DNA from: a virus
Reading direction: 5' to 3' (one strand)
Virus record (IMG/VR): IMGVR_UViG_3300042467_002158
Span: 1-64,000 of that record
Length of the DNA: 64,000 bases
The translations under genes were made by a program, and so were the position numbers. Of the stretch, positions 4,745-60,930 are shown piece after piece; the stretch's first letter is position 1, and each line of letters opens with the position of its first letter. The notes beneath the pieces are model-generated. The model did not search any database. It was given only the letters and a program-made list of their open reading frames with translations, and was not told where the DNA came from.

Positions 4745-6928
4745 CTACGTATTAATTATTGTGTATGTAAAATCATTAGGAATACATACCGATGTGTCAC
4801 ATACAGGACAATCGGGATCAAACATATTAAAATTTGTTTTCACGATTTGGAAATTATGTTTAACTTCGGGAGAAGACAACGGTTCGGTGTAAAATCTAAA
4901 CTGTGAAATCGCACCATCAAAAGTTCCTGCAAAATTTTGTTCTAACAAAATGTGAGTTTTTAACTTATTCAACGTGGTCGCACTTAAAACATTCTCAGGA
5001 AAACATTCCGGGTCTTGTATGTAGTCCCCAACATTAAGAGAGGTGCAAGCCGACAAAGTTAAATTTTCGTGAAGTCCTTGAGTTCCACCACCCCAAGACA
5101 TGTTAAAAGGAACTCCAACTTGTTTTTCTTTATCGGTATCTAAAGCTCGTGGAATGACTTCTTCAAAATTTTCCACAGTGTAAAAAATTCTACCGTTTAT
5201 ATAAATTTTCAAACGACCTAATCTAAATTTAGTTTCGTCCAACCAAGTTTGATTTAACTGAACAATCTCCACTTGACCAGGAATTTCATAACCATTTGTA
5301 TATGGTGGTTGTATTAAACTAATTGAATTGTTAGCCAAACTTTGTAATAACTCGACTCTCGTTATTTGATCCAAACCACCAAACCATCTTAAATCACAAA
5401 AATCTAAAAAAGTGTATCGTTCCCAAACCACATCAATTAAAAACCAATGTTCAAAGTCTAACCAAACAGGATTTACCTCTAAGCAATATGGGTAAATTGG
5501 TGGAGTGCAAATATCAACTATAGTATATCCTGTAACATAAGTTTGACCCGTTATACAAGACCCCGTTGTTTCACATTCACCGGTAATTTTAATTGCTCTA
5601 ATACCAATACCAGGATTTTTTGGGTCACCACATAATCTAAATGAAATGTTATTTGACAAGTCATCCATTTTGGGATCTTTTTCACAAGTATCTTCTATTG
5701 AGTAAAATGTTGATGATGGTGTAGATGGAGGACATCCACAAGTATCACAACCACAACTTGGGCAAGATGTGCAACAAGGTTTGGTTGGACAAGGTATAAC
5801 ATTTGATGGTGCATCGCATGGTGGTGTTGGACTTGGAGTTGGGGTAGGTGTTGGTGTTGGAATTGTTATTCCCGAACAAACATGAGGAAAACACATCCAT
5901 CCACATTTCAAACAAGGATCTAAATTACATCCACAACCACAAGTTAATTGTCTTTCCACACTTCCATTACACAAATTACAACCATAATTGACATGTGGGT
6001 CGTATTCCTCACCAATTGGTCTTGGTGGATATACATAGATACATCTACTGTTTTCTACAGAATAATCACAACAAGCACATGTTTCTTCACAAGTTAAACC
6101 TGAAGTTACTCTAACATAATCTTTATCACATTTTGGTGATCCGTCGGCATAATGGTAAAATTTATTTTCAGCCCGATTACCCATATAAAAAAATGTGTTT
6201 TTGTTATTTGGGTAAATTTGATTTAAAGTGGTATAACCTGGTGGAGGAACAAATTCGTCAGAAAATCTTGGTTTTAAAATCATTTCTACAGTCCACCCCT
6301 TATTCATTCTTTCGGGTAAAATGTCATAGTCATAACCAAACAACTTATAAAACCCTTGATAAAAACCACCATACAATTCAACATATCTACCTATCACAGG
6401 AGCAACTTTAGAAATCATTTGATATGTTGTATAATAAGGAACTCCTGAAAACTTATGATTTGAAGGGACATTTGTTGTTGTTTGAAAAAACTTCATTCGT
6501 CTATCAAAATAAAGTCTTTGGAATTTTAACTGATCGCTAAATAAACCATTTGTAAAAACTATACTATCTCCTTTAATTTTTGAAACTAAACCATTATCAA
6601 CACCTGTCAATCCAATATCACAAGAAGTGCTCGAGCTAAAACAACTTAAATTTAAATTTTCGGGTTGGTAATAAGTTTCTGAAACAATTATGTTATTGGG
6701 ATTATAAATTCCATATGTTAAATTTAAGTTTTGTGTTGTGAGGGGACTATTTAAATTAAGATTAATTGGTAATTTCCTTCCGTCATCCGCCCCAATAATA
6801 AAAGGAGAAAAAACAACTTCCTGATTGTAATCAACTTCATCAGACGCCAAAGACATGTCTTGCCCGTCATAAATAACTTGCAACTTTAACTTTGGGTAGT
6901 TATATTGATTTATATTTTGATACGACAT
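4745..6928 (-). CDS. Large Cys-rich adhesin-like structural protein with LamG-like region
   Basis: A 727-residue protein, first gene of the leftward structural run. The region of about residues 195-270 (GWTVEMILKPRF) and 470-700 (LGRLKIYINGRIFYTVENF, FDGAISQFRFYTEPLS) resembles laminin-G/concanavalin-like carbohydrate-binding folds, apparently split by an insertion. That insertion, about 275-440, is packed with cysteines in CxxC-type pairs (CEETCACCDYS, CGCGCNLDPCLKCGWMC) and holds a short PT linker. The cysteine clusters suggest metal binding or disulfides. A host-glycan adhesin at the tail is plausible but not shown. It diverges from the gene at 6982. Confidence 0.5.
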   Translation of the reverse strand: MSYQNINQYNYPKLKLQVIYDGQDMSLASDEVDYNQEVVFSPFIIGADDGRKLPINLNLNSPLTTQNLNLTYGIYNPNNIIVSETYYQPENLNLSCFSSSTSCDIGLTGVDNGLVSKIKGDSIVFTNGLFSDQLKFQRLYFDRRMKFFQTTTNVPSNHKFSGVPYYTTYQMISKVAPVIGRYVELYGGFYQGFYKLFGYDYDILPERMNKGWTVEMILKPRFSDEFVPPPGYTTLNQIYPNNKNTFFYMGNRAENKFYHYADGSPKCDKDYVRVTSGLTCEETCACCDYSVENSRCIYVYPPRPIGEEYDPHVNYGCNLCNGSVERQLTCGCGCNLDPCLKCGWMCFPHVCSGITIPTPTPTPTPSPTPPCDAPSNVIPCPTKPCCTSCPSCGCDTCGCPPSTPSSTFYSIEDTCEKDPKMDDLSNNISFRLCGDPKNPGIGIRAIKITGECETTGSCITGQTYVTGYTIVDICTPPIYPYCLEVNPVWLDFEHWFLIDVVWERYTFLDFCDLRWFGGLDQITRVELLQSLANNSISLIQPPYTNGYEIPGQVEIVQLNQTWLDETKFRLGRLKIYINGRIFYTVENFEEVIPRALDTDKEKQVGVPFNMSWGGGTQGLHENLTLSACTSLNVGDYIQDPECFPENVLSATTLNKLKTHILLEQNFAGTFDGAISQFRFYTEPLSSPEVKHNFQIVKTNFNMFDPDCPVCDTSVCIPNDFTYTIINT

Positions 6929-19067: not shown

Positions 19068-20098
19068 AAAAAATTTTAGTATTAGGTGGTGGTGGTTTTA
19101 TCGGAGGTCACTTATCAAAACGACTATTTAATGAAGGTAATTACGTTAGAGTTGTTGATATCAAACCAAAACATGAATATTTCGAAACTGAAGAGTTTTG
19201 TAGTGAATATATTTGTGGAGATTTGAGAGACCCTCAAATTGTGTCAAAAATTATGTTTGCACCAAATCAAATATCAATTGACAACAAACAAACATCTTTC
19301 GATGAGGTTTATCAACTAGCGGCAGACATGGGAGGTGCGGGATATATATTTACAGGTGAAAATGATGCAAATGTCATGCACAATTCAGCTTTAGTCAATT
19401 TAAATGTTGTGTATTACGCATCAAAATTTAATGTTAAAAAAATATTTTATTCGTCCTCTGCCTGTATGTATCCCGAACATAATCAATTAGATTCTGAAAA
19501 CCCAAATTGTGAAGAATCATCAGCATACCCTGCTAATCCAGATTCAGAATACGGATGGGAAAAATTATTCAGTGAAAGACTATTTTTTGCTTTTGGCAGA
19601 AATTATGGATTAAATATTAGAGTCGCAAGATTTCACAATATTTTTGGTCCTTATGGAACTTGGGATGGTGGAAAAGAAAAGGCTCCTGCTGCCATGTGCC
19701 GTAAAGCAGCTGAAACACCAGATGGTGGTGAAATAGAAGTTTGGGGTGATGGTAAACAAACAAGATCGTTTTTATATGTTGACGAATGTGTTGAGGCTGT
19801 TTTAAAGTTGATGGATAGTGATTTTGTTGGTCCTGTGAATATTGGGTCTGAAGAAATGGTAACAATAAATGAATTAGCACAAATGGCAATTGATATATCA
19901 AAAAAAGATATTACTATCAATAATATTGATGGTGAGAATTTTTTAGATAAATACGGTTTTAAATGCCCTGTAGGTGTGAGAGGTAGAAATTCCGATAATA
20001 AATTGTATAAATCTAAAGTTGGTTGGGTCGTTTCTGAACCACTAAGAGTCGGAATGGAAAAAACATTCAAATGGATAAATAAACAAGTAAATGGATAG
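19064..20098 (+). CDS. GDP-mannose 3,5-epimerase-like enzyme
   Basis: A 344-residue extended SDR. It carries GGGGFIGGHL (8-17), QLAADMGGAGYIF, SSSACMYPE (about 130-138, with the Cys used in plant GDP-mannose epimerase), the catalytic Y163xxxK167, RFHNIFGPYGTWDGGKEKAP, GDGKQTRSFLYVDECVE and a GVRGRNSDN end. This succession closely matches plant and bacterial GDP-mannose 3,5-epimerases, which make GDP-L-galactose. It would supply a donor for the GT10/GT11 enzymes. Overlaps the preceding gene by 4 nt and the following by 8 nt. Confidence 0.85.
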   Translation: MKKILVLGGGGFIGGHLSKRLFNEGNYVRVVDIKPKHEYFETEEFCSEYICGDLRDPQIVSKIMFAPNQISIDNKQTSFDEVYQLAADMGGAGYIFTGENDANVMHNSALVNLNVVYYASKFNVKKIFYSSSACMYPEHNQLDSENPNCEESSAYPANPDSEYGWEKLFSERLFFAFGRNYGLNIRVARFHNIFGPYGTWDGGKEKAPAAMCRKAAETPDGGEIEVWGDGKQTRSFLYVDECVEAVLKLMDSDFVGPVNIGSEEMVTINELAQMAIDISKKDITINNIDGENFLDKYGFKCPVGVRGRNSDNKLYKSKVGWVVSEPLRVGMEKTFKWINKQVNG

Positions 20099-20537
20099 AC
20101 AAAACAGAACTATCGGAATAACATGCTCAACATTTGATCTTTTACATGCAGGTCATATTATAATGTTAGAAGAATGTAAAAAATATTGTGACTATCTAAT
20201 ATGCGCACTGCAAGTAGACCCGACTATTGACAGACCAGAAAAAAACAAACCAATACAAACTTTGGTTGAAAGATACATTCAATTAGAGTCCGTTAAACAC
20301 GTAGATAAAATTATCCCATATAACACAGAAGAAGATCTTGAATCCATATTTTTATCTTTGGATTTAGATGTCCGAATAATAGGAGAAGAGTATAAAGACA
20401 AAGATTTTACCGCAAAAAACATTTGTCAAAAAAGAGGTATAAGATTCGCCTATAACAAAAGAGATCATAATTTTTCATCTTCTAATTTGAGAAAGTTGGT
20501 TTATGAGCAAGAATCTAATAAAAGGTTTGTTAAATAG
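20091..20537 (+). CDS. Cytidylyltransferase-like nucleotidyltransferase
   Basis: A 148-residue protein of the HxGH nucleotidylyltransferase superfamily: GITCSTFDLLHAGHIIMLEECK holds the HAGH site, followed by IIGEEYKDKDFTAK and the family's late SSSNLRK motif (ISSTxxR equivalent). Relatives include glycerol-3-phosphate cytidylyltransferase (TagD) and the ADP-heptose synthase domain. It probably activates a sugar phosphate or polyol phosphate for the glycan pathway. It begins inside the end of the epimerase gene, supporting a shared operon. Confidence 0.82.
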   Translation: MDRQNRTIGITCSTFDLLHAGHIIMLEECKKYCDYLICALQVDPTIDRPEKNKPIQTLVERYIQLESVKHVDKIIPYNTEEDLESIFLSLDLDVRIIGEEYKDKDFTAKNICQKRGIRFAYNKRDHNFSSSNLRKLVYEQESNKRFVK

Positions 20538-35003: not shown

Positions 35004-36488
35004 TTATTTTAACTTTGTCATCAAATCCTTCATTCTCAAGAATTGAGGATTCTCATAAGTTTTTGATTCGATCAAATTGACAGAAGATCCAGACTCAACA
35101 GTTCTGCTAATTTTTCTATCAACTGATTCATTTAGTTTAGTTTCATGTGTAGAACCTGAACCTAATTCTGATTTAATGGTTCTATACAAGTTTTTAGATT
35201 CTTTCAACGTATCAACGTTGTCAAATCTTCTTAAGATATTTATTTTTTCTTGTTTTGTGGTTGAGTGTTCAGTAAACAAACGTGTGGCGTAAGCCAAATT
35301 TGAATTGAAGATCGCAACTTCGTTAAGTTTTGTTCTGAAAACATCAAGTGCTTTTTTATATTCGTTGTTTTTTTCTTTCATCAATTCTAATTCTTCATTG
35401 ATTGCCGTGTTAAAACTAGAATGTGCTCTTGGTTTAGGAAGACCACCTCTTCTGAAATTAGAACCACTACCTAGTGTTCTTGAAGCTTCTTTTGTTTCCA
35501 TTTTCTTCACAGTGGTGTTTTTTCCTTTTTTCATGTTTTCACCTTCTTTATATTCAAATTTCGCCTTTCCTGTTCCCATTGCTTTGATACCTTTACCAAA
35601 AGCTTCTTTTTTCTTCTCAGAAAAACCTCCACTCATATTTGGTTTTTTATCGTATCCAAACTTAGGTCCTCTACCGATTCCTACACCTTTTGGAGTTACA
35701 GATTTTTTGAACTTTTTGGACCTTTTAGATTCCATCATATAATCATCCATTTCCATCATTTCATCATCCGTTTCCATCATGTAATCATCCGTTTCCATCA
35801 TGTAATCATCCGTTTCCATCATGTAATCATCAGATTCCATCATTTCGTCATCCATTTCGTCCATTTCAGAACCCATACCACTCATTTCAATTTCATAAAT
35901 TGTTTCGTCAGAATCCATCATTTCGTTAGTTTCATCATCCATTTCGATTTCATACATATTTTCCATGTCTTCTTCATCTAATTCATTATAGGACTCTCCT
36001 AGTTGTATCATGTAATCATCATCTTCATCTGTAAGATGGATGTAATCACCTTCTTTTTTCACAACGATTCCATCGTCGTCTCCCATAGCTTTAAAAACCC
36101 TTAAAACTTCTTCATCGGAAGCATCTGTCATATCGATAGCGTCTTCTTCATCGTCCATTTCCATATCATCCTCAGGCTCCATTTCCATGTCTTCATCATC
36201 CATTTCCATGTCTTCATCATCCATTTCCATGTCATCTTCAGGTTCCATTTCCATGTCCTCATCGTCCATTTCTTCAGGACCCATGTCCATTTCATCATCG
36301 ACTTCGATTTCGTCATCGGTTGCGGGTTGTTCAATCTCATCTTGTTCTTTCAAAGATTCTTTTACCAATTGTCTGATTTCTTCACTCATTGTAGACTGAA
36401 GTATTCCTTTTGCATTTTCTTGTAGAGTCTCTTCCAAATTCTTAATTTGAAATAGAGCATCTTCTACTACATTTTTGTTGTAACTCAT
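35004..36488 (-). CDS. Prohead scaffold/core protein, T4 gp22-like
   Basis: A 494-residue protein immediately upstream of the capsid gene (32-nt gap), the position of T4 gene 22. The N-terminal helix (NKNVVEDALFQIKNLEETLQ) and C-terminal coiled-coil region (ELELMKEKNNEYKKALDVF, TKLNEVAIFNSNLAYATRLF) match gp22 cores. Between them, about residues 60-260, lies a strongly acidic Met/Asp/Glu repeat (units such as DDEDMEMEPEDDMEM and DDYMMET) and a short Lys-rich segment (KKFKKSVTPKGVG). The acidic insert makes it nearly twice the length of T4 gp22. It would form the inner core of the prohead and then be degraded by the protease. Confidence 0.82.
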   Translation of the reverse strand: MSYNKNVVEDALFQIKNLEETLQENAKGILQSTMSEEIRQLVKESLKEQDEIEQPATDDEIEVDDEMDMGPEEMDDEDMEMEPEDDMEMDDEDMEMDDEDMEMEPEDDMEMDDEEDAIDMTDASDEEVLRVFKAMGDDDGIVVKKEGDYIHLTDEDDDYMIQLGESYNELDEEDMENMYEIEMDDETNEMMDSDETIYEIEMSGMGSEMDEMDDEMMESDDYMMETDDYMMETDDYMMETDDEMMEMDDYMMESKRSKKFKKSVTPKGVGIGRGPKFGYDKKPNMSGGFSEKKKEAFGKGIKAMGTGKAKFEYKEGENMKKGKNTTVKKMETKEASRTLGSGSNFRRGGLPKPRAHSSFNTAINEELELMKEKNNEYKKALDVFRTKLNEVAIFNSNLAYATRLFTEHSTTKQEKINILRRFDNVDTLKESKNLYRTIKSELGSGSTHETKLNESVDRKISRTVESGSSVNLIESKTYENPQFLRMKDLMTKLK

Positions 36489-36510
36489 TTTTTTTTAAAT
36501 AGTTTTTCTA

Positions 36511-36517
36511 ATAAATA
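36511..36517 (-). promoter_or_regulatory. TATTTAT motif before the scaffold-capsid genes
   Basis: The minus strand reads GAATATTTATTAGAAAAAC, 22 nt before the scaffold start at 36488. As capsid protein must be made late and in bulk, this copy is a strong candidate late promoter. Confidence 0.6.
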
Positions 36518-36552
36518 TTCACATTTTTCAAAAAGTTCTGTATTTTACACGA

Positions 36553-36571
36553 TTGGGCATAAAAAAAGGGA
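36553..36571 (-). repeat. 19-bp terminator-tail repeat, copy 1
   Basis: The 19-nt string TTGGGCATAAAAAAAGGGA occurs identically here and at 58943-58961. In both places it is the distal end of a minus-strand terminator (CCCTTTTTTTATGCCCAA on that strand). Confidence 0.7.
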
Positions 36572-36598
36572 AAAAGATTTTTTTCCTTTTCCCTTTTT
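36563..36598 (-). terminator. Intrinsic terminator after the prohead protease unit
   Basis: Complementary A/G-rich and C/T-rich arms (GGGAAAA with TTTTCCC, extended by A-T pairs) are followed on the minus strand by a T7 run. It ends the transcript of the DUF4494-like gene and separates it from the scaffold-capsid genes. Confidence 0.7.
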
Positions 36599-36617
36599 AA
36601 TTAAAATTTTCTTGAGT

Positions 36618-36830
36618 TTACCCTTCGATTACCTCATCAATTTTTGATTCAACAATAGCGGTAATTCGCCAATCCATAGTATAATTTTCATATACCTTTG
36701 TAACTTTAGCCTCAACATCAGTCGGTGAATATCCTCTGACCAATTTTTCTTCTTTCATTTTCTTTACCTTTCCGGTGTTCTCATCAACAATATCAGTTGT
36801 GATTCTCGCAATAAAATACTTTTCGTCCAT
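36618..36830 (-). CDS. DUF4494-like small protein
   Basis: A 70-residue protein with YFIARITTDIVDENTGKVKK, a central EKLVRGYSPTDVEAKV and ITAIVESKIDEVI. This layout resembles DUF4494, a family known mainly from Bacteroidota and their phages, which agrees with the host suggested by promoters. Function unknown. It sits between the protease and scaffold genes, where T4 has no equivalent; it has 12 nt to the protease gene and is probably cotranscribed with it. Confidence 0.65.
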   Translation of the reverse strand: MDEKYFIARITTDIVDENTGKVKKMKEEKLVRGYSPTDVEAKVTKVYENYTMDWRITAIVESKIDEVIEG

Positions 36831-39736: not shown

Positions 39737-42505
39737 TTAATCACCTAAAAGTTTTGATAATTCATCGGTTACCTCACCTAAAGTGTTATTAACTTTTTGA
39801 AAATCTAAAAATTCGTCTTCATCAAAATCATCAATTTCTGATTCTAATATGAGTTTGTTTTTATCCTTTCTTATTGATTCAGGAATTGGGGGTGCTCCTC
39901 CTTCTTCTCCTCCCGCTGGTGGTGGAGGTGGTGCTCCTCCTTCTCCTCCCGCTGGTGGAGCGGCAGCTCCTCCTGCAGATGCAGTTCCTCCAGTTACGGT
40001 TTTGTATAATCTATCAACCGTATCAAAAATACCTGTTTTTGTAATAATAGTTGCCGTATTATCAAGTTCAGCGGCAACTGCTCGTTCCATTCTGATTTGG
40101 TTAAGTTCGACTTTGATTTCATCATCAGAAAAACCAAAAATATGTTTTTTCGCCCATGTTGCTGAAGTAGGCTGAATTGATTTAGCAATTTCAGACACCA
40201 TATCTTTATATAATATCACCTTTTCTTTCCAAACGTCAATCATTAATAAATCTGCTTGTTTAGATGGGTTTGTAAGTTGTAACGTAAAGTTTGATAACTC
40301 ATCCTCAAATCCCATAAGAAATAAGTGAATGATTGCAATTTTATTCATCTCAGCAATTGCCGATTTTTGAATTCTATTGATTGTTCTTGCAAAACGAATA
40401 TCCAATAGTGATAAGTTTTTACCATCACCTACAGGTTCCTCAAAACCTAAATACGCTTTAGGAATACGAAGTGCTGTAACCAATTTCTTTTGGATATACT
40501 CAATATCTGCGATTTCTGAAAGGTTAGTTGCTCCCGGTAATGTCTCAATTGGACTTGCTTGAGCGGCGTCTCTTACAGGAATAAAATAATCTTGATCCAC
40601 TGCCATTTGGTTAAATCTTAAATCCACATTTCCTGTTTTTCTATCAACAATTTGATCTCTTTTAAATTTGTTTGCAACTCTTTGAACATATGGCTCAACA
40701 TCTTTGTCATCCATGTTACCAACGAAAACTTTGAAAACTCTCCTTTCGGGTGCTCTTGATGTTCTATAGATTAACATCGCATCTTCAGACAATACTAATT
40801 GTTTCCAAATACGACGAGCCTTTTCTAACATTGATGTTCCATAAGGAAGTTTTCTATCATCACCCAACAATCTAAAGTGGGCAACCTCCCAAGTATTAAA
40901 TTCGGCTTCCCTTGCTTTCCACGCAAATTTCAAGGCCTTTCTATTAACATTAATTGTCGCGTTATATGTTCTTGAATCAATACCTCTTTCTAATCTTTCG
41001 ATTTCGATGTTTGGTAATTGAAGGCATCCTGTAACCCCTTTTTCAGGGTCTAATTTCAGATAAACAAAATTATCACCATATTTACACATGTTTCTAATCC
41101 ACATCGGTAAATTAGTGTTTATGTCTAATGTATTAACAAATAAATCAACTAAAATACTTTTGATTCTTTTTGATTCAGAATATACTTGTAAAATATAACC
41201 ATTTTGATCTGGGGTAGTTGATTCTTCAGCGTATATGTCAAGTGCGGTTGAGATTTCGGGAGTGTTATGTGAAAAAATTGAGTCTGTAGCAAAATTTTTA
41301 TATCCAGGAACAGTCAAATCATAAACAGGCACAACACCATGAGGTTCAATTGATACTATTTTATGGTTTAAGTTAATTATATCTTTTTTTGCTTTAGCTG
41401 TTGAGTATGGTGATTTCTGTATTCCGTATGCGGTTAAAAAAGTTCCCCAATCTTGATATCCATTTGAAACGATTTCTCTTTGTAACTTTCGGTAAGATAC
41501 ATTTAATTGTTTAGCGGTTCCCTTCAAGGTTTTTATTTTTCTTGCAGTTTCAATAATGTTATCCCAACCTATTTTTATGTAAGCTGGATTTTTATCACCA
41601 CTTCGTCTTCCACCCCAAACTAATTTACCCTTTCTTTTTGCGACTTCAGACATTTTGTTTCTATAATCAGGATTAGACCATAATTTTTCGTTATTTAGTC
41701 TTGCATGATATGCTCTGTGTTCAGATATCTTCATTATTTGTAGGTTTTCAGGTAAATTATTTTTACCATCAAAATCAATATGATGCACTTCCTCGTCTTC
41801 GTTTACTTTAACATCATAAAACCATTCAGCAACTAAATTGTGTTCTGAAACCCAACCATTATGACCCTCTACAGAATTACAAGTGTAAACCCAATTATAT
41901 TTCTTGTTATTATAAAAAGATTTACGATAAAATGGCATCATTGAATCTCCAGGCTTTAAATTCATAACCCGTTCAAATGAACCATCTCTTTTCATAAATT
42001 GGTGTTCCCATGTTGCAATAATATGACTACCGTCATCAAACGTGACTTTATATGTCATTTCATCTCTAGTATAATGGGCGTTTCTAGCTACTGCGGGAAC
42101 TACTTTTTTAAGGTTATGATCATATGCATAAGTAATAAATTCATAATCCCTACCTTTTTCCGATAACTCTTTAATTGTGATAAAACCGTTCGGGGTTGCA
42201 ATTTTAGTATCTCCCGCCAAACAATATTCCATTGATTCGTAATCGTAAAACGCCGCCAATCTTGTTGGTTCATAATAAACCGCTTGGGTATATAAATTGT
42301 TTTCAACTTTCGCCCAATTGGTGCTTAGATATAAAGATTGTTGATTTTGGAGTTTTGCCCTTTCATACTCAGCTTTATCTTGAGTTTTTAAAATTTCTTT
42401 TTTATCTAGTTTGTAGTCTGGTCTTCCTTGACCTAAGGTGCTATCAGGACCAAAAGTCTTGGAAAGTTTTTGCCAAACTGTTAGATTTTGATTGTTATTT
42501 TCCAT
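39737..42505 (-). CDS. Portal protein, T4 gp20-like, interrupted by an intein
   Basis: A 922-residue precursor. Residues 1-94 and 415-922 together make a 602-residue T4 gp20-type portal: the N-extein ends FYDYESMEY and the C-extein begins TPEISTALDIYAEES, which join into the conserved portal motif. Later landmarks are MLIYRTSRAPERRVFKVFVG, ATNLSEIADIEYIQKKL and LRIPKAYLGFE. The portal forms the dodecameric DNA gate at one head vertex. The C-terminal part has a Gly/Pro/Ala-rich stretch (about 860-890) before an acidic end. Residues 95-414 are an intein annotated separately. Splicing is needed for a working portal. Confidence 0.92.
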   Translation of the reverse strand: MENNNQNLTVWQKLSKTFGPDSTLGQGRPDYKLDKKEILKTQDKAEYERAKLQNQQSLYLSTNWAKVENNLYTQAVYYEPTRLAAFYDYESMEYCLAGDTKIATPNGFITIKELSEKGRDYEFITYAYDHNLKKVVPAVARNAHYTRDEMTYKVTFDDGSHIIATWEHQFMKRDGSFERVMNLKPGDSMMPFYRKSFYNNKKYNWVYTCNSVEGHNGWVSEHNLVAEWFYDVKVNEDEEVHHIDFDGKNNLPENLQIMKISEHRAYHARLNNEKLWSNPDYRNKMSEVAKRKGKLVWGGRRSGDKNPAYIKIGWDNIIETARKIKTLKGTAKQLNVSYRKLQREIVSNGYQDWGTFLTAYGIQKSPYSTAKAKKDIINLNHKIVSIEPHGVVPVYDLTVPGYKNFATDSIFSHNTPEISTALDIYAEESTTPDQNGYILQVYSESKRIKSILVDLFVNTLDINTNLPMWIRNMCKYGDNFVYLKLDPEKGVTGCLQLPNIEIERLERGIDSRTYNATINVNRKALKFAWKAREAEFNTWEVAHFRLLGDDRKLPYGTSMLEKARRIWKQLVLSEDAMLIYRTSRAPERRVFKVFVGNMDDKDVEPYVQRVANKFKRDQIVDRKTGNVDLRFNQMAVDQDYFIPVRDAAQASPIETLPGATNLSEIADIEYIQKKLVTALRIPKAYLGFEEPVGDGKNLSLLDIRFARTINRIQKSAIAEMNKIAIIHLFLMGFEDELSNFTLQLTNPSKQADLLMIDVWKEKVILYKDMVSEIAKSIQPTSATWAKKHIFGFSDDEIKVELNQIRMERAVAAELDNTATIITKTGIFDTVDRLYKTVTGGTASAGGAAAPPAGGEGGAPPPPPAGGEEGGAPPIPESIRKDKNKLILESEIDDFDEDEFLDFQKVNNTLGEVTDELSKLLGD
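41264..42223 (-). mobile_element. Intein with HNH homing endonuclease in the portal gene
   Basis: The 320-residue insertion starts CLAGDTKIATPNGFITIKEL (block A, Cys1 nucleophile), has a block B-like DGSHIIATWEHQFMK with the TxxH pattern, and ends VYDLTVPGYKNFATDSIFSHN (blocks F and G with terminal His-Asn), followed by Thr as the +1 residue. Between lies an HNH nuclease: SEHNLVAEWF, VHHIDFDGKNNLPENLQIM and HRAYHARLN, and a helix-turn-helix (GTAKQLNVSYRKLQREIV). All residues needed for protein splicing and homing appear intact. It sits in the most conserved part of the portal, as expected for inteins. Confidence 0.93.
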
Positions 42506-49924: not shown

Positions 49925-51778
49925 TTATTTTACTTCCTCAAACTCCACATTTGTCACTTCTTCATCGGAACTTGTTTCATTTGACATGCTGTATAATTTT
50001 TGACTAATTGATTGAAATTCAGAATTGAGTTCATCTGTAAATTTTTTCACGTCATCTATATTTTTATTACTATGTGCAACCTTTAACTTATCAATTTTGG
50101 AAGTTATGTTTTGTTTCTCATCTTCAGTAATTTTATCTTCCAAATCTGTTAAAGATTTTTCAACTTGGAAAATTAATGAATCCGCAGAATTTAATGTGTC
50201 AGCATCTTCTTTTAATTTTTTGTCGGCTTCAGCGTTCATTTCGGCTTCTTCTTTCATTCTTTGAATTTCTTCTTTTGATAAACCTGATGACGATTCGATT
50301 CTGATTGATTGTTGTTTGTTTGTTGCCTTATCTACGGCCGAAACATTAATAATACCATTAGCATCAATATCAAAAATAACCTCAATCTGTGGAGTTCCCC
50401 TTCTTGCCGGTGGAATACCATCCAAGTTAAACTTTCCAATTGTTTTATTATCCTTCGCCATTGATCTTTCACCCTGAAGAACATGAATTTCAACTGTAGG
50501 TTGATTGTCGGATGCGGTTGAAAATACTTCAGATTTTTTTGTTGGGATTGTTGTATTTGCACTAATTAGTTTGGTGAATACTCCCCCCATAGTTTCAATA
50601 CCTAAAGAAAGTGGTGTAACATCTAATAATAATACATCAGTAACATCACCACCCAAAACACCACCTTGAATTGCAGCACCTAAAGCAACTACTTCATCAG
50701 GATTCACCCCTTTTGACGGATCTTTACCGAAGAATTTTTTAACGGCCTCTTGAATGGCGGGAATTCGTGTTGATCCACCCACCAAAATAATCTCATCAAT
50801 ATCACTTGGTTTTAAACCAGCATTTTTTAAAGCAGATTCACACGGTTTAATTGTTCTTTTTACCAAGTCTTCTGTTAGTTGATCGAATTTTGATTTTGTA
50901 ATTGTCACAACAAGGTGTTTAGGACCTGATGAGTCTGCCGATAAATATGGAAGATTAACCTCTGTTTGTGGAGATGAAGATAATTCGATTTTGGCCTTTT
51001 CACCGGCTTCTTTAAGTCTTTGAAGAGCCATTGGATCTTTTGTTGCGTCAATTCCTGTATTTTGTTTAAATTCAGACGCTAAAAAATCAATAATCACTTG
51101 ATCGAAGTCATCACCACCTAAATGAGTATCACCATCTGTAGATAATACTTCAAATACACCATCACCAAGTTCCAATACAGATACGTCATGTGTTCCACCA
51201 CCGCAGTCAAATACCACAATTTTCATGTCTCTTGACATTTTATCCAAACCATACGCCAAAGCCGCTGCCGTTGGTTCATTAATAATTCTTTTAACATTTA
51301 GACCTGCAATTTCACCGGCCTCTTTTGTCGCTTGTCTTTGTGCGTCGTTAAAGTAAGCAGGAACCGTAATTACAGCATCAGTAACCTTTTCACCCAAGTA
51401 GTCTTCGGCGGTTTGTTTCATTTTTTGAAGAATTGCCGCTGAAATTTCTTGTGGAGAAAAACTTCTATCATCAATTTTAACTTTTGGTGTTTGATTTTCA
51501 TTTATAATTTCATAAGGAACTTTTGATATTTCACTTTTAGTTTCCTCAAACTTACTACCCATAAATCTTTTAATTGAGTAGATCGTTTTATTTGGATTTG
51601 TTACGGCCTGACGTTTTGCAGGATCTCCAATCTTTCTTTCCCCATCTTTAATAAATCCAACAACAGATGGTGTTGTCCTTTTACCTTCGCTGTTTGTGAT
51701 TACCACAGGTTCGCGACCTTCCATTACTGCCACGCAAGAATTAGTAGTTCCTAAATCTATCCCAATAATTTTTCCCAT
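49925..51778 (-). CDS. dnaK: Hsp70 chaperone DnaK
   Basis: A 617-residue full-length DnaK. ATPase landmarks are [19 protein letters not shown] at the start, [11 protein letters not shown], the phosphate loop [12 protein letters not shown] (most DnaK have DLGGGTFD) and [10 protein letters not shown]; the substrate-binding domain has [20 protein letters not shown]. It ends in an acidic tail ([12 protein letters not shown]). The start is the ATG at 51778 because the family's MGKIIGID begins there; an upstream in-frame ATG at 51829 would add 17 unrelated residues. No DnaJ or GrpE is in the window, so it may use host cochaperones. A TATTTAT motif lies about 73 nt upstream. Confidence 0.95.
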
Positions 51779-51851
51779 TTTTTTAATACATTTTGTTTTT
51801 AAGTTTATTTTTTCGCCATTGAACACCAATAGTGTGCCATTTTTAGAAAAA

Positions 51852-51858
51852 ATAAATA
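51852..51858 (-). promoter_or_regulatory. TATTTAT motif upstream of dnaK
   Basis: The minus strand reads CAGTATATTTATTTTTTC, 73 nt before the dnaK start, the longest distance in the set; the leader would be unusually long. Confidence 0.35.
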
Positions 51859-51861
51859 TAC

Positions 51862-51874
51862 TGACAATTTGTCA
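51862..51874. promoter_or_regulatory. Inverted repeat in the dnaK-clpC divergent region
   Basis: TGACAATTTGTCA is a near-perfect palindrome (TGACA, 3-nt centre, TGTCA), 35 nt before the clpC-like start and close to the dnaK-side motif. A second imperfect copy of the half-site, CTGACAAGTGTTCAG, follows near 51891. It could be an operator for coordinated control of both chaperone genes. Confidence 0.35.
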
Positions 51875-51908
51875 TATAACAAATAAAAAACCTGACAAGT
51901 GTTCAGTT

Positions 51909-53996
51909 ATGGACTTTATAAAAAGTTATTTCTATAATTTGAAAAAAAAAGTTATGTTAGAATTTATGGATGAAGGAAACGACAAATCAAAAAAGAAACC
52001 CGACAGCACAACACCTGTTTTGGATAATTTCAGTAAAGATTTAAATAAGTTAGCACAAGACGGGAAACTTGATCCTGTAATTGGAAGAAAGAAGGAAATA
52101 TTGAGAATTGCTCAGATTCTTTCTCGTAGGAAAAAAAATAACCCGATTATTATTGGAGAACCAGGAGCGGGTAAAACTGCGATCGTTGAGGGTCTTGCGA
52201 TGATGATTCACGATGGAGAATGTCCAAAAAACCTTATGGATAAAAGAATCGTATCTTTAGATATGAATTCTTTGGTTGCAGGAACAAAATACCGTGGTCA
52301 GTTTGAAGAAAGAATGAAAGTTATTATTGAGGAATTACAAAACTCACCAAATATTATTTTATTTATTGATGAAATTCACACAATAGTTGGAGCAGGGAAT
52401 AGTTCAGGATCGTTAGACGCTTCAAACATATTTAAACCGGCACTATCAAGAGGTGAAATCCAATGTATTGGAGCAACAACCTTAGACGAATATCGAACAA
52501 ACTTTGAAAAAGATGGAGCATTAGAAAGAAGGTTTCAAAAAGTCATCGTAGATCCTGCAACAAAAGAAGAAACGTTGGAGATTTTAAAGTTGAGTAAATT
52601 AAAATATGAGGATCACCATAAAGTTTCATACGACGATGAGACATTAAAAATATTTGTTGAGTTAGCAGACCGATATATCACAGATCGTGAGTTTCCTGAT
52701 AAGGCCTTTGATATTTTAGATGAAGTTGGAGCAAGAATGCAAATTGACATTAAATTACCAAAGGAAATTGAAGATTTGAAAGAACAAGCAAACCAAATCA
52801 AACAAGAAAAATTTAATGTAATTAAAAAACAAAACTACGAACAAGCGGCCGAATTACGAGATCGTGAAAGAAGTGTGTTGTCCAAATTAGAAGAAGAAAA
52901 AAAGAAATTTGAGGAACACTTAAGAAGTAGTAAAAGAAATATCCCTGAAGAATTGATTTATGAAGTCGTGTCAAATATGACTAAAATTCCAATCTCAAAT
53001 ATCAACGTCGATGAAAGAAATAGTTTGATTAGTTTGAATTCAAATTTGAATTCCAAAGTTATCGGTCAAGAAGAGGCGGTCAATAAAATTTCAAAGGCAA
53101 TCAGAAGAAATCGTATGGGGATCAAAGATCCAAATAAACCAATCGGATCATTTATTTTTCTTGGTTCCACCGGAGTTGGAAAAACTTATTTGGCAAAACA
53201 ATTGGCAAAAGAAATCTTTGGAAGTCCTGATAATATGATTAGAGTTGATATGAGTGAATATCAAGAAAAACATACAATATCTCGTCTTATTGGATCTCCT
53301 CCGGGATATGTTGGACATGATGAGGGTGGTCAATTGACAGAACAAGTTAAAAACAAACCATATTCGGTGGTATTATTTGATGAGATCGAAAAGGCACACA
53401 AAGACATATTTTCAACTCTTCTTCAATTATTGGATGATGGTCACATTACAGATTCTTTGGGTCGTAAAATCAACTTCAAAAATTGTTTGATTATTATGAC
53501 TTCTAACATTGGGGTTAAAAAACTTCAAGACTTCGGAACAGGTGTCGGGTTTAAAACCACAAAAAGTGATGTTGTTCTAGAAGAAGAAAAACAAGAAGTA
53601 TTAAAGAAAGAATTAAAGAAGTTTTTTGCTCCTGAATTTTTGAATAGAATTGATGATGTAATTATATTTAATAGTTTAGAAAAAAGTCATATTGATCAGA
53701 TCACAAAACTTGAGGTTGATAAATTGTTAAGTAGAGTTCTAGAAAAACATTATATCTTTTCATATAACCAAGATTTAATTGACTTTATATCAAAGGTCGG
53801 ATTTGATGAAACATTTGGGGCAAGACCTATAAAACGAGCGATTCAAGACAAAATTGAAGATTTGATTTCAGAAAAAATATTGATGTCTGAAATTGAGGAG
53901 AACGAGGAATATATGTTGGTTGTTGAAAACGACGAAATTATTGTGACAAATAAAGAAGAAAAACCAAAAAGAAGGGGAAGAAAAAAAACTGAATAA
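51909..53996 (+). CDS. ClpC-like AAA+ unfoldase lacking the N domain
   Basis: A 695-residue Hsp100 protein. AAA module 1 has GEPGAGKT (83-90), [13 protein letters not shown] and arginine-finger region GALERRF; a UVR-type segment (about 290-335, [20 protein letters not shown]) marks it as ClpC-type; module 2 has GSTGVGKT (about 420-427), [15 protein letters not shown] and [13 protein letters not shown] tripeptide near residues 546-548 is in the place of the ClpP-docking loop, so it could drive host ClpP. The family's N-terminal repeat domain is absent; about 38 charged residues replace it. The start is ATG 51909, since earlier in-frame codons overlap dnaK antisense and have no Clp similarity. 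Confidence 0.92.
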
Positions 53997-57267: not shown

Positions 57268-58397
57268 CTAATTCTATACTCAGTCGGGTTAAATAAACCT
57301 GGCTGAGTTGCCATTGCAATCACACTATCAACATCAGAAACACCCATTTTAGAGTTCCAATTTTGTCGTGAGGTCCCAACTCTAAATGTCACTTTAAGGG
57401 TTTCAGGGTCAACTTTCTCAACTTTAAGGTAATGTTTTTTATCAGGTAATTGTTTGAATACAAATAATTTCAATTCTCCAAGTTTTCTCATTATCTCAAT
57501 ATAATCTGAGTTAATTTCTTCGTGAGCCTTTTCAATATACTCATCCATCAGATCCTCAAGTTTCTCACAAGTCTCACTTTCAAAAATTTCATTATCCCAA
57601 ACACTATATTCAATTTCATAATACTCAGGTGGATGATTATTAAAACCCCTTTCGATTGTGCTAAATAATAGATCCAATACATTCTCATCAAAGTCCCCTT
57701 TATCTATATACAACTGAACAAGATTACCCCAACTTATAAAGTAAGTTTTAAAACAATTTGTAAGTCTACTACTACCCCAATTTTCAATACCAAATTGTTT
57801 TAGACCATCACAATAAGTATTTTCTATCAATTCTTGAGCTCCACTAGAAACTGCACTATCTTTTCCTCTACAAACTATTTCATCAATTTTATCACCAAGA
57901 CCAGGAAAAAACTTATCCAATATCGTTGGTAGTTTACCTTCACCATCATATCTTATACCACGATTATTTGTTTTTACAAAATATTTACTTGTAGATGGGT
58001 CTAAAAACTCGGCAAGTTGTTTTAGTTTTAACATTGCAGAATCACAAAAATAATTTAATTGATATCCTTCATCCCAATCATCGTACGCCCTATCTTGACA
58101 CTCACTATAAAAGTCCCAATTTCCGTAATACATTCTATCGTAATTTCCAGCGTCCCACTCACCATCAGTACCTTCTTTATATGTTTCTTGAAAGAAAAAC
58201 TTTAAAAATTCTTCTAAATCATTAAAATGAAACAATAGACCATGGGGAGTTACTTCAATAATATCACTGAAATCTTTACCTTCAGAATTGTAAAAAACAA
58301 CATCATTATGGTCTAACTTTCTTTTATTTAAAAGTAGAATTTTTCTGAAATCTTCAAGTTCATCAATATCTTCTTCTATTAATAGTCTTTTTCTCAT
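57264..58397 (-). CDS. Hypothetical acidic protein, 377 aa
   Basis: Not recognised. Strongly acidic and aromatic-rich (DGEWDAGNYDRMYYGNWDFY, DRAYDDWDEGYQLNYF), with a hydrophobic start MRKRLLIEED that could be a short leader ending in LIE. The C-terminus (KVTFRVGTSRQNWNSKMGVS) looks like a small beta domain. It has a TATTTAT motif 6 nt upstream and is convergent with the peptidase. Acidic surface proteins of this kind are sometimes DNA mimics, but nothing here proves that. Confidence 0.5.
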   Translation of the reverse strand: MRKRLLIEEDIDELEDFRKILLLNKRKLDHNDVVFYNSEGKDFSDIIEVTPHGLLFHFNDLEEFLKFFFQETYKEGTDGEWDAGNYDRMYYGNWDFYSECQDRAYDDWDEGYQLNYFCDSAMLKLKQLAEFLDPSTSKYFVKTNNRGIRYDGEGKLPTILDKFFPGLGDKIDEIVCRGKDSAVSSGAQELIENTYCDGLKQFGIENWGSSRLTNCFKTYFISWGNLVQLYIDKGDFDENVLDLLFSTIERGFNNHPPEYYEIEYSVWDNEIFESETCEKLEDLMDEYIEKAHEEINSDYIEIMRKLGELKLFVFKQLPDKKHYLKVEKVDPETLKVTFRVGTSRQNWNSKMGVSDVDSVIAMATQPGLFNPTEYRIS

Positions 58398-58403
58398 GTA
58401 TTT

Positions 58404-58410
58404 ATAAATA
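58404..58410 (-). promoter_or_regulatory. TATTTAT motif before the 377-aa gene
   Basis: The minus strand reads CAATATATTTATAAATACATG, 6 nt before the start at 58397, and it is back-to-back with the tmRNA promoter. Confidence 0.45.
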
Positions 58411-58412
58411 TA

Positions 58413-58443
58413 TTGTCAAAGTGAAATCTTTGTATTATATTTG
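58413..58443 (+). promoter_or_regulatory. Host-type promoter for tmRNA (TTG-N20-TATATTTG)
   Basis: TTG at 58413-58415 and TATATTTG at 58436-58443 are 20 nt apart. The expected start near 58450 leaves about 30 nt before the mature tmRNA 5' end, which would be removed by RNase P. Confidence 0.78.
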
Positions 58444-58480
58444 TTCTATAGTTCTTTGAAAATAGTCATTAAAGATATAT

Positions 58481-58898
58481 GGGCCTATATCGGATTTGAC
58501 GGGCGTTGGTTGGATAAAAGAAGCATGTAGGGACTAAGTTAATCTCTTTAAAAACTGACTTAGAAAACAACTGGCAATGTGCTAAACAAAATGGAAACTC
58601 TTGGTTTACTAAGAGGTTCTGAAGTTACTGTAGCTTAATAAGATACGGAAACGGAGGGTCGGTCAGACAGATACCTAGTAACAGAAGTCGTAGATGAGTT
58701 GGTTTTCACTCTAAAAGGAAACAACGGTCTCGTTCAGAGGGCTACCGTAACAAAAGTGAACTCGACACAGTTTTTGGTGACAATGTCAAAATAGGAACCA
58801 AATATTTTGGAAGGTATGAAAAACCTTAACCTAAACATGTAGTTGTCTTTTTGACAAAACGAGCCGGACGAGGGAGTCGGAGCCCTCTAGGTCCACCA
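58481..58898 (+). ncRNA. ssrA: tmRNA (one-piece)
   Basis: A 418-nt transfer-messenger RNA. The 5' end GGGCCTA pairs with TAGGTCC at 58888-58894 to form a 7-bp acceptor stem (one G-U), followed by discriminator A and encoded CCA at 58896-58898. The D-arm consensus is present as CGGATTTGACGGG (58491-58503). A T-arm stem GAGGG/CCCTC is present but its loop (AGTCGGAG) lacks the usual TTC. The tag frame runs from codons after TAG 58561-58563 to tandem stops TAA TAA at 58636-58641; if it resumes at GGC 58573 the tag has 21 residues, starting GNVLNKMETL and ending SEVTVA. tmRNA with SmpB rescues stalled ribosomes. No smpB gene is in the window. Confidence 0.9.
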
Positions 58899-58903
58899 AT
58901 TGA

Positions 58904-58930
58904 AACCTCATCTTCGGATGGGGTTTTTTT
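58904..58930 (+). terminator. tmRNA terminator with TTCG loop
   Basis: AACCTCATC pairs with GATGGGGTT (one T-G pair) around a TTCG tetraloop, followed by seven Ts, starting 6 nt after the CCA end. Confidence 0.9.
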
Positions 58931-58942
58931 ATACTTAAATTT

Positions 58943-58961
58943 TTGGGCATAAAAAAAGGGA
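58943..58961 (-). repeat. 19-bp terminator-tail repeat, copy 2
   Basis: Identical to 36553-36571. It forms the T-run and following ATGCCCAA of the giant RNA's terminator on the minus strand. Confidence 0.7.
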
Positions 58962-58972
58962 CGATTCGTCCC
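58951..58972 (-). terminator. Terminator of the giant RNA
   Basis: On the minus strand GGGAC pairs with GTCCC (potentially extended by GA/TC) and is followed by seven Ts. It lies at the far end of the gene-free region, 960 nt from the promoter. Confidence 0.8.
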
Positions 58973-59927
58973 TAATGTTTTTTACCGGTGGCTCCATTTT
59001 AAAAAAAAGAAACGCTGAGATTACACGTTTGTGTGAGAACCTTTAGAGTCATTATTGTTTCTACTCTTATCCACTTCCTTTTGAGAAGTATTTCTCAGTG
59101 ACGGTCTTTTAGGTATACCATTCCTTGAGGTTTGAATTACTCTCATCCTAATCTACTCTTCTCGAGGATGCCTCCCCAACTCGTCCTTGCGGGACTAAAG
59201 GTTTTTCGGATAATTACACATCGACTTGGGATCTCTGTGTGCAATGAACGGCTCATTACTATGTAGTCACCTTTCATCCAAACCTGACGGACACTTTTCC
59301 TTAATTTATTCTTAATGGTTATTAATAATAATAAGTTTTGTGTCGTGGATTATCGAAGTAGTGGTCCGCCAACCGAGCCAACCCATCTTTTGAACGAGTC
59401 GATACTCAACTACTCCGTGAAATGTCCCCATCTCCATATTTCAAGACTACTTCGAAACTAACTCCTTGGTAGAAGTAAATTAAGGTTAGTAACGACACCA
59501 CTCGTACACTAACATACCTTTCGGCTTTAAGTATCCTTTTATATTGGAACACGCAATAATGAAATTGGATAATATCATGTTTTGCAAATATTCCTACGAG
59601 TTATTCCTATTGGTGTTCCCACCTCAATTTGACGACCCACATCGCCAAATCACCTAACCACTTTCCCTACAGCGTTGCCCTCGGTACTAAAGGTTAAACG
59701 GTATCCCGCTTGTGTACTCGAGCTCCCGAAGAAGCCGCAAATCATCTAACACAAATGACTCACTTTATCCTACTTTCGTAGATTATTTATGGACTATACA
59801 CGGCCCAATATCTTTATCAGTTAAAAGATGAAAATTTCATTCCAATTACTTGTCAAATAATCTGACAAAACTTTTACCTGAATGGATAATCTATTTTTTC
59901 AAAGAACGTATCGGACTTTTCCGATTT
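58973..59927 (-). ncRNA. Giant structured noncoding RNA of unknown class
   Basis: A gene-free stretch of about 955 nt (about 975 with its terminator) has a perfect Bacteroidota promoter at one end and a terminator at the other, both on the minus strand. It has visibly more G and C than neighbouring DNA and no reading frame of note. Many local hairpins are visible: 59910-59925 (ATCGGA/TCCGAT) at the 5' end, 59770-59781 (CTAC-GAAA-GTAG on the RNA strand), a GCC-GAAA-GGT hairpin at 59516-59526, 59396-59407, 59243-59257, 59216-59240 (ACACA/TGTGT) and 59082-59097 (TGAGAA/TTCTCA). A longer-range 10-bp pairing joins 59353-59362 and 59446-59455. Size, phage setting and neighbour tmRNA recall the large phage-associated RNAs GOLLD and ROOL, but I cannot match conserved sequences from memory. 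Confidence 0.75.
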
Positions 59928-59933
59928 GTTTTA

Positions 59934-59964
59934 CAAAGTTAAGACATTTATTTTAATCTGTCAA
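59934..59964 (-). promoter_or_regulatory. Host-type promoter of the giant RNA (TTG-N20-TAACTTTG)
   Basis: On the minus strand TTGACA begins at 59964 and TAACTTTG occupies 59941-59934, separated from TTG by 20 nt. Both boxes are full matches to the Bacteroidota consensus, the best promoter in the window. Confidence 0.82.
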
Positions 59965-59992
59965 GCACTTTGTGATTTTTTTTTTATTTTTT

Positions 59993-60139
59993 TTATTCCG
60001 CAATTTCTACGGTTTCAAAATATAATTTACTACCACATTGGACCGCTCTTATTTTAGCGAAAGTCTCATTTGATGTCCATACTTGAACTCCGTTGTTATA
60101 GTAGTAATAAATTTCAACTAATTTTGGTTCTTCACTCAT
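59993..60139 (-). CDS. Small hypothetical protein, 48 aa
   Basis: Reads MSEEPKLVEIYYYYNNGVQV, continues with WTSNETFAKIRAVQCGSKLY and ends ETVEIAE. It is a small beta-rich protein with a run of four tyrosines and one cysteine. No family recognised. A TATTTAT motif lies 30 nt upstream, and it lies just beyond the promoter of the giant RNA, which reads away in the same direction, so its stop is close to the -33 box of that promoter. Confidence 0.6.
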   Translation of the reverse strand: MSEEPKLVEIYYYYNNGVQVWTSNETFAKIRAVQCGSKLYFETVEIAE

Positions 60140-60169
60140 AATCTTTTTTATTTATAGTGAAATGATAAT

Positions 60170-60176
60170 ATAAATA
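60170..60176 (-). promoter_or_regulatory. TATTTAT motif before the 48-aa gene
   Basis: The minus strand reads GAAATATTTATATTATC, 30 nt before the start at 60139. Confidence 0.4.
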
Positions 60177-60195
60177 TTTCGTTGTGTCAACAAAG

Positions 60196-60930
60196 TTAAA
60201 GAATTTTTTTAAAAATATCGTGAATTCTATTTAATTCTTCATTCAAATTTTCATTTTCTTCAATCGACTCTTTCATCTCACCTACAATACCAAGAAAATT
60301 TAAAAAATCACCAATAGGTCCCAAAGCTGATGAAGATTGGTTAGATTTGGTTTTTTTGTCAGTTGTGGTTTCCTTTTCAATTGATCCTTCTTCTTCTTCG
60401 TCATCAATGGAAGTATCGGTTGATGATATTTCCATTTTACCCTTACAAAAACTATCACATCTTGATGATCTATTTGGTCCTGGTCCGCAGTAAGTAAAAT
60501 GCCATGGTTCCGATGTAACCTCACCCCAACACCAACCATACTTATATCCATTGTCTTTGATCCACTGTTGAGCCTTTCTTGACGACAAGTCTAATGCTCT
60601 ACCCCAACCATGATTTGACGTTCCAGGAGCCGCCACAGCAACATTAGAAGTCCCAATTTTAATTCTCTTTCCTGTTTCTTCATAAGTGTCAAAATTGAAA
60701 ATATTACATTGGATTTTTAATGGACGATAAGAATCTGAGATTTTTAAATCTTTTTGAACGTCTTCGGGCATGTCTTCATACATTATCTCGAGTGCGTCTG
60801 CAGCCTCAGAAGCCAATTCATATTTGCTTGAACCAACCTCACCTTTTTTTAAATTTTGAAGACACCCATTATCGGTGGATCCAAATTTTGAACATGGGTT
60901 TGAACTACTGCATTCTGATCTTGAAACCAT
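60196..60930 (-). CDS. M15 (VanY-like) peptidoglycan peptidase, likely endolysin
   Basis: A 244-residue protein. Residues 63-150 form a zinc DD-carboxypeptidase domain: ISDSYRPLKIQ, SNHGWGRALDLS (H107, D114) and EVTSEPWHFTYCGPG (E141, H144). This domain cuts peptide cross-links in the cell wall and is common in phage endolysins. Four cysteines in the first 25 residues (SECSSSNPCSKFGSTDNGC) may form disulfides. The C-terminal 90 residues are acidic, then hydrophobic and helical (LGPIGDFLNFLGIVGEMKES), possibly for membrane or virion contact. No signal peptide; a holin would be needed for export. Confidence 0.8.
   Translation of the reverse strand: MVSRSECSSSNPCSKFGSTDNGCLQNLKKGEVGSSKYELASEAADALEIMYEDMPEDVQKDLKISDSYRPLKIQCNIFNFDTYEETGKRIKIGTSNVAVAAPGTSNHGWGRALDLSSRKAQQWIKDNGYKYGWCWGEVTSEPWHFTYCGPGPNRSSRCDSFCKGKMEISSTDTSIDDEEEEGSIEKETTTDKKTKSNQSSSALGPIGDFLNFLGIVGEMKESIEENENLNEELNRIHDIFKKIL

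What the first reader, a model, noticed from the sequence alone, without database searches (positions are those of the whole stretch)
58951..59964. Giant structured RNA (about 975 nt) with its own perfect host-type promoter and terminator
The only long gene-free stretch of the window is bounded on the minus strand by TTG-N20-TAACTTTG and by a GC hairpin with T7. The sequence has more G+C than its surroundings, no coding capacity, many local hairpins (two with GAAA loops) and a 10-bp long-range pairing (59353-59362 with 59446-59455). Known phage-linked RNAs of this size (GOLLD, ROOL) are structural and of unclear function. If it matches none, it is a new class of large RNA carried next to a tmRNA.
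Basis: partly seen in the sequence, partly recalled or inferred. Interest (0 to 1): 0.9.

Follow-up and report, generated by a model that had tools for sequence, protein, structure and literature searches.

The report
Phage GOLLD RNA beside a tmRNA
The gene-free stretch encodes a GOLLD RNA, a known giant phage RNA whose relative self-assembles into an RNA-only cage; what seems new is that it and the tmRNA next to it are started by a copy of the host's ribosomal-RNA control leader.

Summary
Window 59930-58957 (minus) is a GOLLD RNA: Rfam RF02032 scores 322.7 bits (cut-off 150) over the full 416-position model. The Rfam model covers only the 3' part. Fifty homologues extend the conserved fold through a ~400-nt 5' domain that lies outside it, with phylogeny-corrected covariation in both domains. 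A model of that 5' domain also finds it in an Acinetobacter phage. Contacts like those that hold the GOLLD nanocage together are kept (a covarying two-pair kissing contact, the L21a GC/CG loop, the L22 pseudoknot). Promoter and terminator are real; the promoter is conserved in 49/50 homologues.

What looks unreported: (i) a tmRNA lies within 3.7 kb of GOLLD in 25 of 26 phage records that have one, convergent in 19; (ii) GOLLD (50/50) and the tmRNA (31/32) carry a boxA-like GTTCTTTGA leader element just after a host-type promoter. The same element stands before 16S rRNA in 14 of 25 Bacteroidota loci; in the 140-kb genome 5 of its 9 occurrences precede RNA genes. I infer an rRNA-style antiterminated stable-RNA regulon. 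The function of the cage remains unknown.

The parts
59934..59964 (-). Bacteroidota-type promoter TTG-N20-TAACTTTG of the GOLLD gene
   Evidence: promoter in 49/50 homologues
59910..59925 (-). 5' leader hairpin ATCGGAAAAGTCCGAT
   Evidence: 84.9% of cells paired, every pair with double changes
59897..59908 (-). boxA-like antitermination element CGTTCTTTGAAA
   Evidence: 50/50 homologous leaders; GTTCTTTGAAA occurs only twice in the window; same element upstream of Bacteroidota 16S
59436..59812 (-). GOLLD 5' domain (the cage 'cap' by analogy), not in the Rfam model
   Evidence: covarying helices; CM R1 of 59812-59650 finds it in Acinetobacter phage Ab15, E 2.5e-11
59012..59417 (-). Rfam RF02032 GOLLD match, model 1-416, 322.7 bits
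59302..59339 (-). AT-rich variable linker between the domains (inferred to lie inside the cage)
   Evidence: variable stretch in the alignment; analogy with PMC12286853
59299..59300 (-). GG forming a non-nested covarying contact with hairpin loop 59229-59228 (B7-like kissing contact)
   Evidence: 50/50 Watson-Crick at both pairs: GC33/CG17 and GC46/UA4; in the covariation list
59098..59102 (-). 3' strand of pseudoknot GUGAC/GUCAC with 59270-59266
   Evidence: 100% paired in 50 sequences, 43 double changes; top non-nested covarying pair
59187..59190 (-). loop L21a (GCAA, or UCGA in 8 relatives), self-complementary bridge B8 by analogy
   Evidence: GC/CG switch as reported in PMC12286853
58957..58973 (-). 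intrinsic terminator of GOLLD, U-runs on both strands
58413..58443 (+). promoter of the tmRNA gene TTG-N20-TATATTTG
58451..58461 (+). boxA-like element in the tmRNA leader
   Evidence: a box of this type in 31/32 phage tmRNA leaders (read off)
58481..58898 (+). tmRNA (RF00023, 73.6 bits, cut-off 47), convergent with GOLLD
   Evidence: not called by ARAGORN
58573..58641 (+). tmRNA tag reading frame GNVLNKMETLGLLRGSEVTVA**
   Evidence: ARAGORN calls near-identical tags in relatives L020 and L113

Best explanation
A GOLLD RNA gene of a T4-like phage of Bacteroidota. Host RNA polymerase starts at the TTG-N20-TAACTTTG promoter, reads through a hairpin plus boxA-like leader, makes an RNA of about 970 nt and stops at the hairpin-T7 terminator. 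Shown here: family membership, both structured domains, promoter, boxA-like leader, tmRNA neighbour. Inferred: (1) the boxA element recruits host Nus factors, as in rRNA operons, so a long untranslated RNA escapes Rho and folds while it is made; (2) the RNA assembles into a GOLLD-type homo-oligomeric cage; (3) GOLLD, the tmRNA and the tRNA array form one stable-RNA regulon serving translation late in infection. What the cage holds or does is not known.
For: RF02032 at 322.7 bits, full model. 43 of 43 phage records tested carry GOLLD above the cut-off (chosen for a GOLLD motif or BLAST match). Covariation: 23-29 pairs above the maximum of phylogeny-preserving simulations, 22-26 of them in the predicted structure, 7-8 in the 5' domain. 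The cage-type contacts are kept. boxA-like leader: 50/50 GOLLD leaders; 31/32 distinct phage tmRNA leaders at about 0.02 expected per leader; 14 of 25 Bacteroidota 16S leaders with at least 400 nt upstream, 0 in 43.5 kb of 16S. A Hymenobacter 16S leader has the same promoter plus box. In the 140-kb genome 5 of 9 sites precede tmRNA, GOLLD or tRNAs. A divergent GOLLD (L080) has the proteobacterial form GTTCTTTAACA in the same place.
Against: No transcript data. boxA function and host are inferred from sequence. One divergent GOLLD (L080) is not matched by the 5'-domain model, and the Acinetobacter GOLLD sits inside a tRNA array without an obvious box. Only 3 of 19 host tmRNA leaders examined have the box, so it is not a general host tmRNA feature. 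My loop names are assigned by analogy to PMC12286853, not by superposition.
Confidence: 0.9

Rival explanations
1. A new class of giant RNA, unrelated to known families.
For: The 5' ~500 nt lies outside every Rfam model.
Against: The 3' 406 nt match GOLLD over the full model at twice the cut-off; GOLLD is described as having a less conserved 5' region (PMC12286853); the 5' domain is shared by 50 homologues and an Acinetobacter phage GOLLD.
Confidence: 0.01
2. The GTTCTTTGA element is not an antiterminator but a conserved part of the RNA fold (RNAalifold pairs it with 59127-59122) or of the promoter.
For: RNAalifold pairs 59905-59900 with 59127-59122 at 97% of cells.
Against: That pairing has only 2 double changes, and 59125-59123 already pair with L22 in 50/50. 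The same element stands before tmRNAs, tRNAs and host 16S, where no such partner exists.
Confidence: 0.2
3. The tmRNA-GOLLD neighbourhood reflects only the clustering of stable RNAs in one island, with no joint function.
For: A 25-tRNA array lies about 6 kb away on the GOLLD strand; 17 of the 43 GOLLD records have no tmRNA over the cut-off, though many records are fragments; 6 of 25 close pairs are on the same strand rather than convergent.
Against: 25 of 26 records with a tmRNA have it within 3.7 kb, in records of up to 304 kb.
Confidence: 0.5

Closest known systems
GOLLD RNA (Rfam RF02032; cryo-EM of GOLLD env-38, PMC12286853)
   Same: Full-length match to the Rfam model; conserved 3' domain, separate 5' domain, AT-rich linker; contacts like B7, B8 and the L22 pseudoknot; phage gene near tRNAs.
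   Different: Convergent neighbour is a tmRNA; boxA-like leader, not mentioned in the GOLLD papers read; the 5' domain could not be compared with env-38 directly.
ROOL RNA
   Same: Giant phage RNA near tRNA islands; also forms a nanocage (PMC12286853).
   Different: No Rfam ROOL match in the window.
rRNA operon leader with boxB/boxA antitermination (E. coli: PMC4807359)
   Same: Promoter, small hairpin, then a boxA-like sequence before a long untranslated stable RNA; motif identical to Bacteroidota 16S leaders.
   Different: Drives phage GOLLD and tmRNA; Nus-factor binding not tested.

Membership tests
GOLLD (RF02032) | Covariance-model score above the curated cut-off over the whole model | tested here: met
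   322.7 against 150 bits, 1-416
GOLLD (RF02032) | Large RNA (over 800 nt) with conserved 3' region and separate, less conserved 5' region | tested here: met
   about 970 nt from promoter to terminator; both domains covary
GOLLD (RF02032) | Variable linker between the domains | tested here: met
   AT-rich, poorly aligned 59339-59302
GOLLD (RF02032) | Intermolecular kissing contact of L20 (B7) | tested here: inconclusive
   Two covarying non-nested pairs between a loop that fits L20 and 59300-59299, 50/50; the paper's partner J13/15 could not be mapped, and inter- versus intramolecular cannot be told from sequence
GOLLD (RF02032) | L21a self-complementary dinucleotide switching GC/CG (B8) | tested here: met
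   GCAA in 42, UCGA in 8
GOLLD (RF02032) | L22 pseudoknot with J17/22 | tested here: met
   three pairs, 50/50 each
GOLLD (RF02032) | Assembly into a 14-mer cage | not testable with these tools
   needs purified RNA
ROOL / OLE / HEARO / group I and II introns / RNase P | Rfam match | tested here: not met
   no hit up to E=1 in 58300-60200 other than GOLLD, tmRNA and a sub-threshold DapZ
tmRNA (RF00023) | CM score, acceptor with CCA, tag frame with stop | tested here: met
   73.6 against 47 bits; ends in CCACCA; tag GNVLNKMETLGLLRGSEVTVA**; G3:U70 read from the sequence
rRNA-type boxA antitermination leader | Motif shared with host rRNA leaders, placed between promoter and RNA | tested here: met
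rRNA-type boxA antitermination leader | NusB/S10 binding and Rho-resistant elongation | not testable with these tools
   needs biochemistry

The most novel reading that the evidence does not exclude
These phages run an rRNA-mimicking stable-RNA regulon: GOLLD, tmRNA and tRNA arrays share a host rRNA-type promoter plus boxA leader, so the phage recruits the host's rRNA antitermination and co-transcriptional folding machinery to mass-produce an RNA nanocage in step with tmRNA and tRNAs.
Probability: 0.5. Interest if true: 0.6.

Novelty: new member of a known kind. Interest (0 to 1): 0.42.

Why it matters
The function of GOLLD is unknown. A boxA leader and a linked tmRNA give two concrete, testable handles: how such a long untranslated RNA is made and folded, and whether it works with ribosomes, tmRNA and tRNAs during infection. 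The alignment also supplies a covariance model for the part of the 5' domain that Rfam lacks.

Tried and rejected
Thirty pattern hits in bacterial and archaeal genomes gave no GOLLD in the 18 loci checked. A 'third RNA' before tRNA arrays in relatives matched no Rfam family and was left as a note. Pattern GGGTCGYGT...GATAAAG found only a coding sequence with no GOLLD. A boxA-anchored search for more proteobacterial GOLLDs found only L080 (scrambled-box control 0); BLAST with L080 found no phage record. My first register for the GUGAC pseudoknot was wrong and was corrected. Direct comparison with GOLLD env-38 was not possible (sequence not held). Literature searches for boxA with Bacteroidetes or Flavobacterium gave no description of this motif, and none for GOLLD beside a phage tmRNA, within the open-access library only.

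Full report
WHAT IS THERE. The window is the first 64 kb of a 140,128-base virus record. It encodes a T4-type portal carrying an intein, a T4-type terminase, DnaK and a ClpC-like ATPase. On the minus strand a TTG-N20-TAACTTTG promoter (59964-59934), a small hairpin (59925-59910), CGTTCTTTGAAA (59908-59897), about 900 nt without coding capacity and a hairpin-T7 terminator (58973-58957) follow each other. On the plus strand a tmRNA (58481-58898) points towards it.

IDENTITY. cmscan gives RF02032 GOLLD at 59417-59012, 322.7 bits (cut-off 150), over the whole model, and no other family for this stretch. That settles the family. The Rfam model omits the 5' ~500 nt.

STRUCTURE. Of the 123 loci then held, 119 match the window's GOLLD by BLAST; 90 hold it full length and 60 are non-redundant. 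Fifty were aligned. RNAalifold gives 41 helices (248 pairs) across both domains, most with double compensatory changes. Against simulations that keep the tree and the substitution counts, 23-29 pairs exceed the largest of ten null alignments; 22-26 of them are in the predicted structure, 7-8 in the 5' domain. Two significant non-nested pairs point to a 5-bp pseudoknot GUGAC/GUCAC (100% paired, 43 double changes) and to a two-pair contact 59300-59299/59228-59229 (GC33/CG17 and GC46/UA4). The latter resembles the L20 kissing bridge B7; L21a (GCAA42/UCGA8) and the L22 pseudoknot fit the published description (PMC12286853). My assignment of loop names is by analogy. A covariance model of 59812-59650 (R1) finds the 5' domain in Acinetobacter phage Ab15, E=2.5e-11, upstream of its 3' domain, though that phage was not in the training set; it does not find it in the divergent L080.

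NEIGHBOURHOOD. Among 43 GOLLD records 26 have a tmRNA over the cut-off. In 25 of these it lies within 3.7 kb; 19 convergent, 6 same strand, 0 divergent. Several records are near-duplicates, so the number of independent cases is smaller (by my count about 16). The own genome has 25 tRNA genes at 66-76 kb on the GOLLD strand.

LEADER. GTTCTTTGAAA occurs exactly twice in 64 kb, in the leaders of the tmRNA and of GOLLD (0.17 expected). Over the 140-kb genome GTTCTTTGA occurs 9 times: tmRNA, GOLLD, three before tRNAs, four elsewhere, by position inside genes. It is in 50/50 GOLLD leaders. A box GTT[AC][AT]TT[GA]A is in 31 of 32 distinct phage tmRNA leaders; this count was read off the printed sequences, whose own regular expression counted 13 exact and 15 under a narrower variant. 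In Bacteroidota genomes the exact motif precedes 16S in 14 of the 25 loci with at least 400 nt of upstream sequence, mostly 84-220 nt away, and is absent from 43.5 kb of 16S. A Hymenobacter 16S leader shows TTGACAAATGAAATAAAGCTTCTACCTTTG followed by CACGTTCTTTGAA. Host tmRNA leaders rarely have it (3 of 19). L080 has GTTCTTTAACA, the classical proteobacterial boxA form (from general knowledge), before its GOLLD. In E. coli rRNA boxA recruits NusB/NusE and prevents Rho termination of long noncoding RNA (PMC4807359). That the phage element does the same is inference.

MECHANISM AND CONFIDENCE. GOLLD identity: about 0.99. Expression from this promoter with an antiterminating leader: about 0.65. 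Cage assembly: about 0.8, from family and conserved contacts. A translation-linked role with tmRNA/tRNA/ribosomes: about 0.3; supported only by neighbourhood and by a ribosome pull-down cited in PMC12286853. The search of open-access papers found no description of GOLLD beside a phage tmRNA or of a boxA leader on GOLLD, but subscription papers, including the original GOLLD paper, could not be read.

Noticed in passing
L087:2042-2160, L118:10413-10530, L005 and L078 (minus), L052:1562, L120:195: A conserved ~100-nt RNA-like element (TTGTGRTTGTAAG...GGGAAACTCGTAAAGTG...GTTGACTCAAGATGGTGAAACGAGAGTGTGAGTCAA) right after promoter + boxA at the head of phage tRNA arrays; no Rfam match in L087.
   Followed up: partly
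window 39737-42505 (-): T4-type portal protein interrupted by an intein (Pfam Intein_splicing, Portal_T4).
   Followed up: partly
window 49925-51829 (-) and 51696-53996 (+): Phage-encoded DnaK (Hsp70) and a ClpC-like AAA+ ATPase with a UVR motif, in a phage that also carries a tmRNA: possibly its own protein quality-control set.
   Followed up: no
window 58481-58898 (+): The tmRNA is missed by ARAGORN but found by Rfam; long 21-residue tag GNVLNKMETLGLLRGSEVTVA.
   Followed up: partly
G000 66041-75940 (L190): Array of 25 tRNA genes on the same strand as GOLLD, with boxA-like sites at 75954, 73907 and 70840.
   Followed up: partly
L080:5866-5937 (-): A tRNA lies inside the GOLLD match 5582-6008 of a divergent phage, as reported for some GOLLD linkers.
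   Followed up: no
G188 (record of L020) 19736-20149 and 36280-36673: Two GOLLD genes in one phage record.
   Followed up: no
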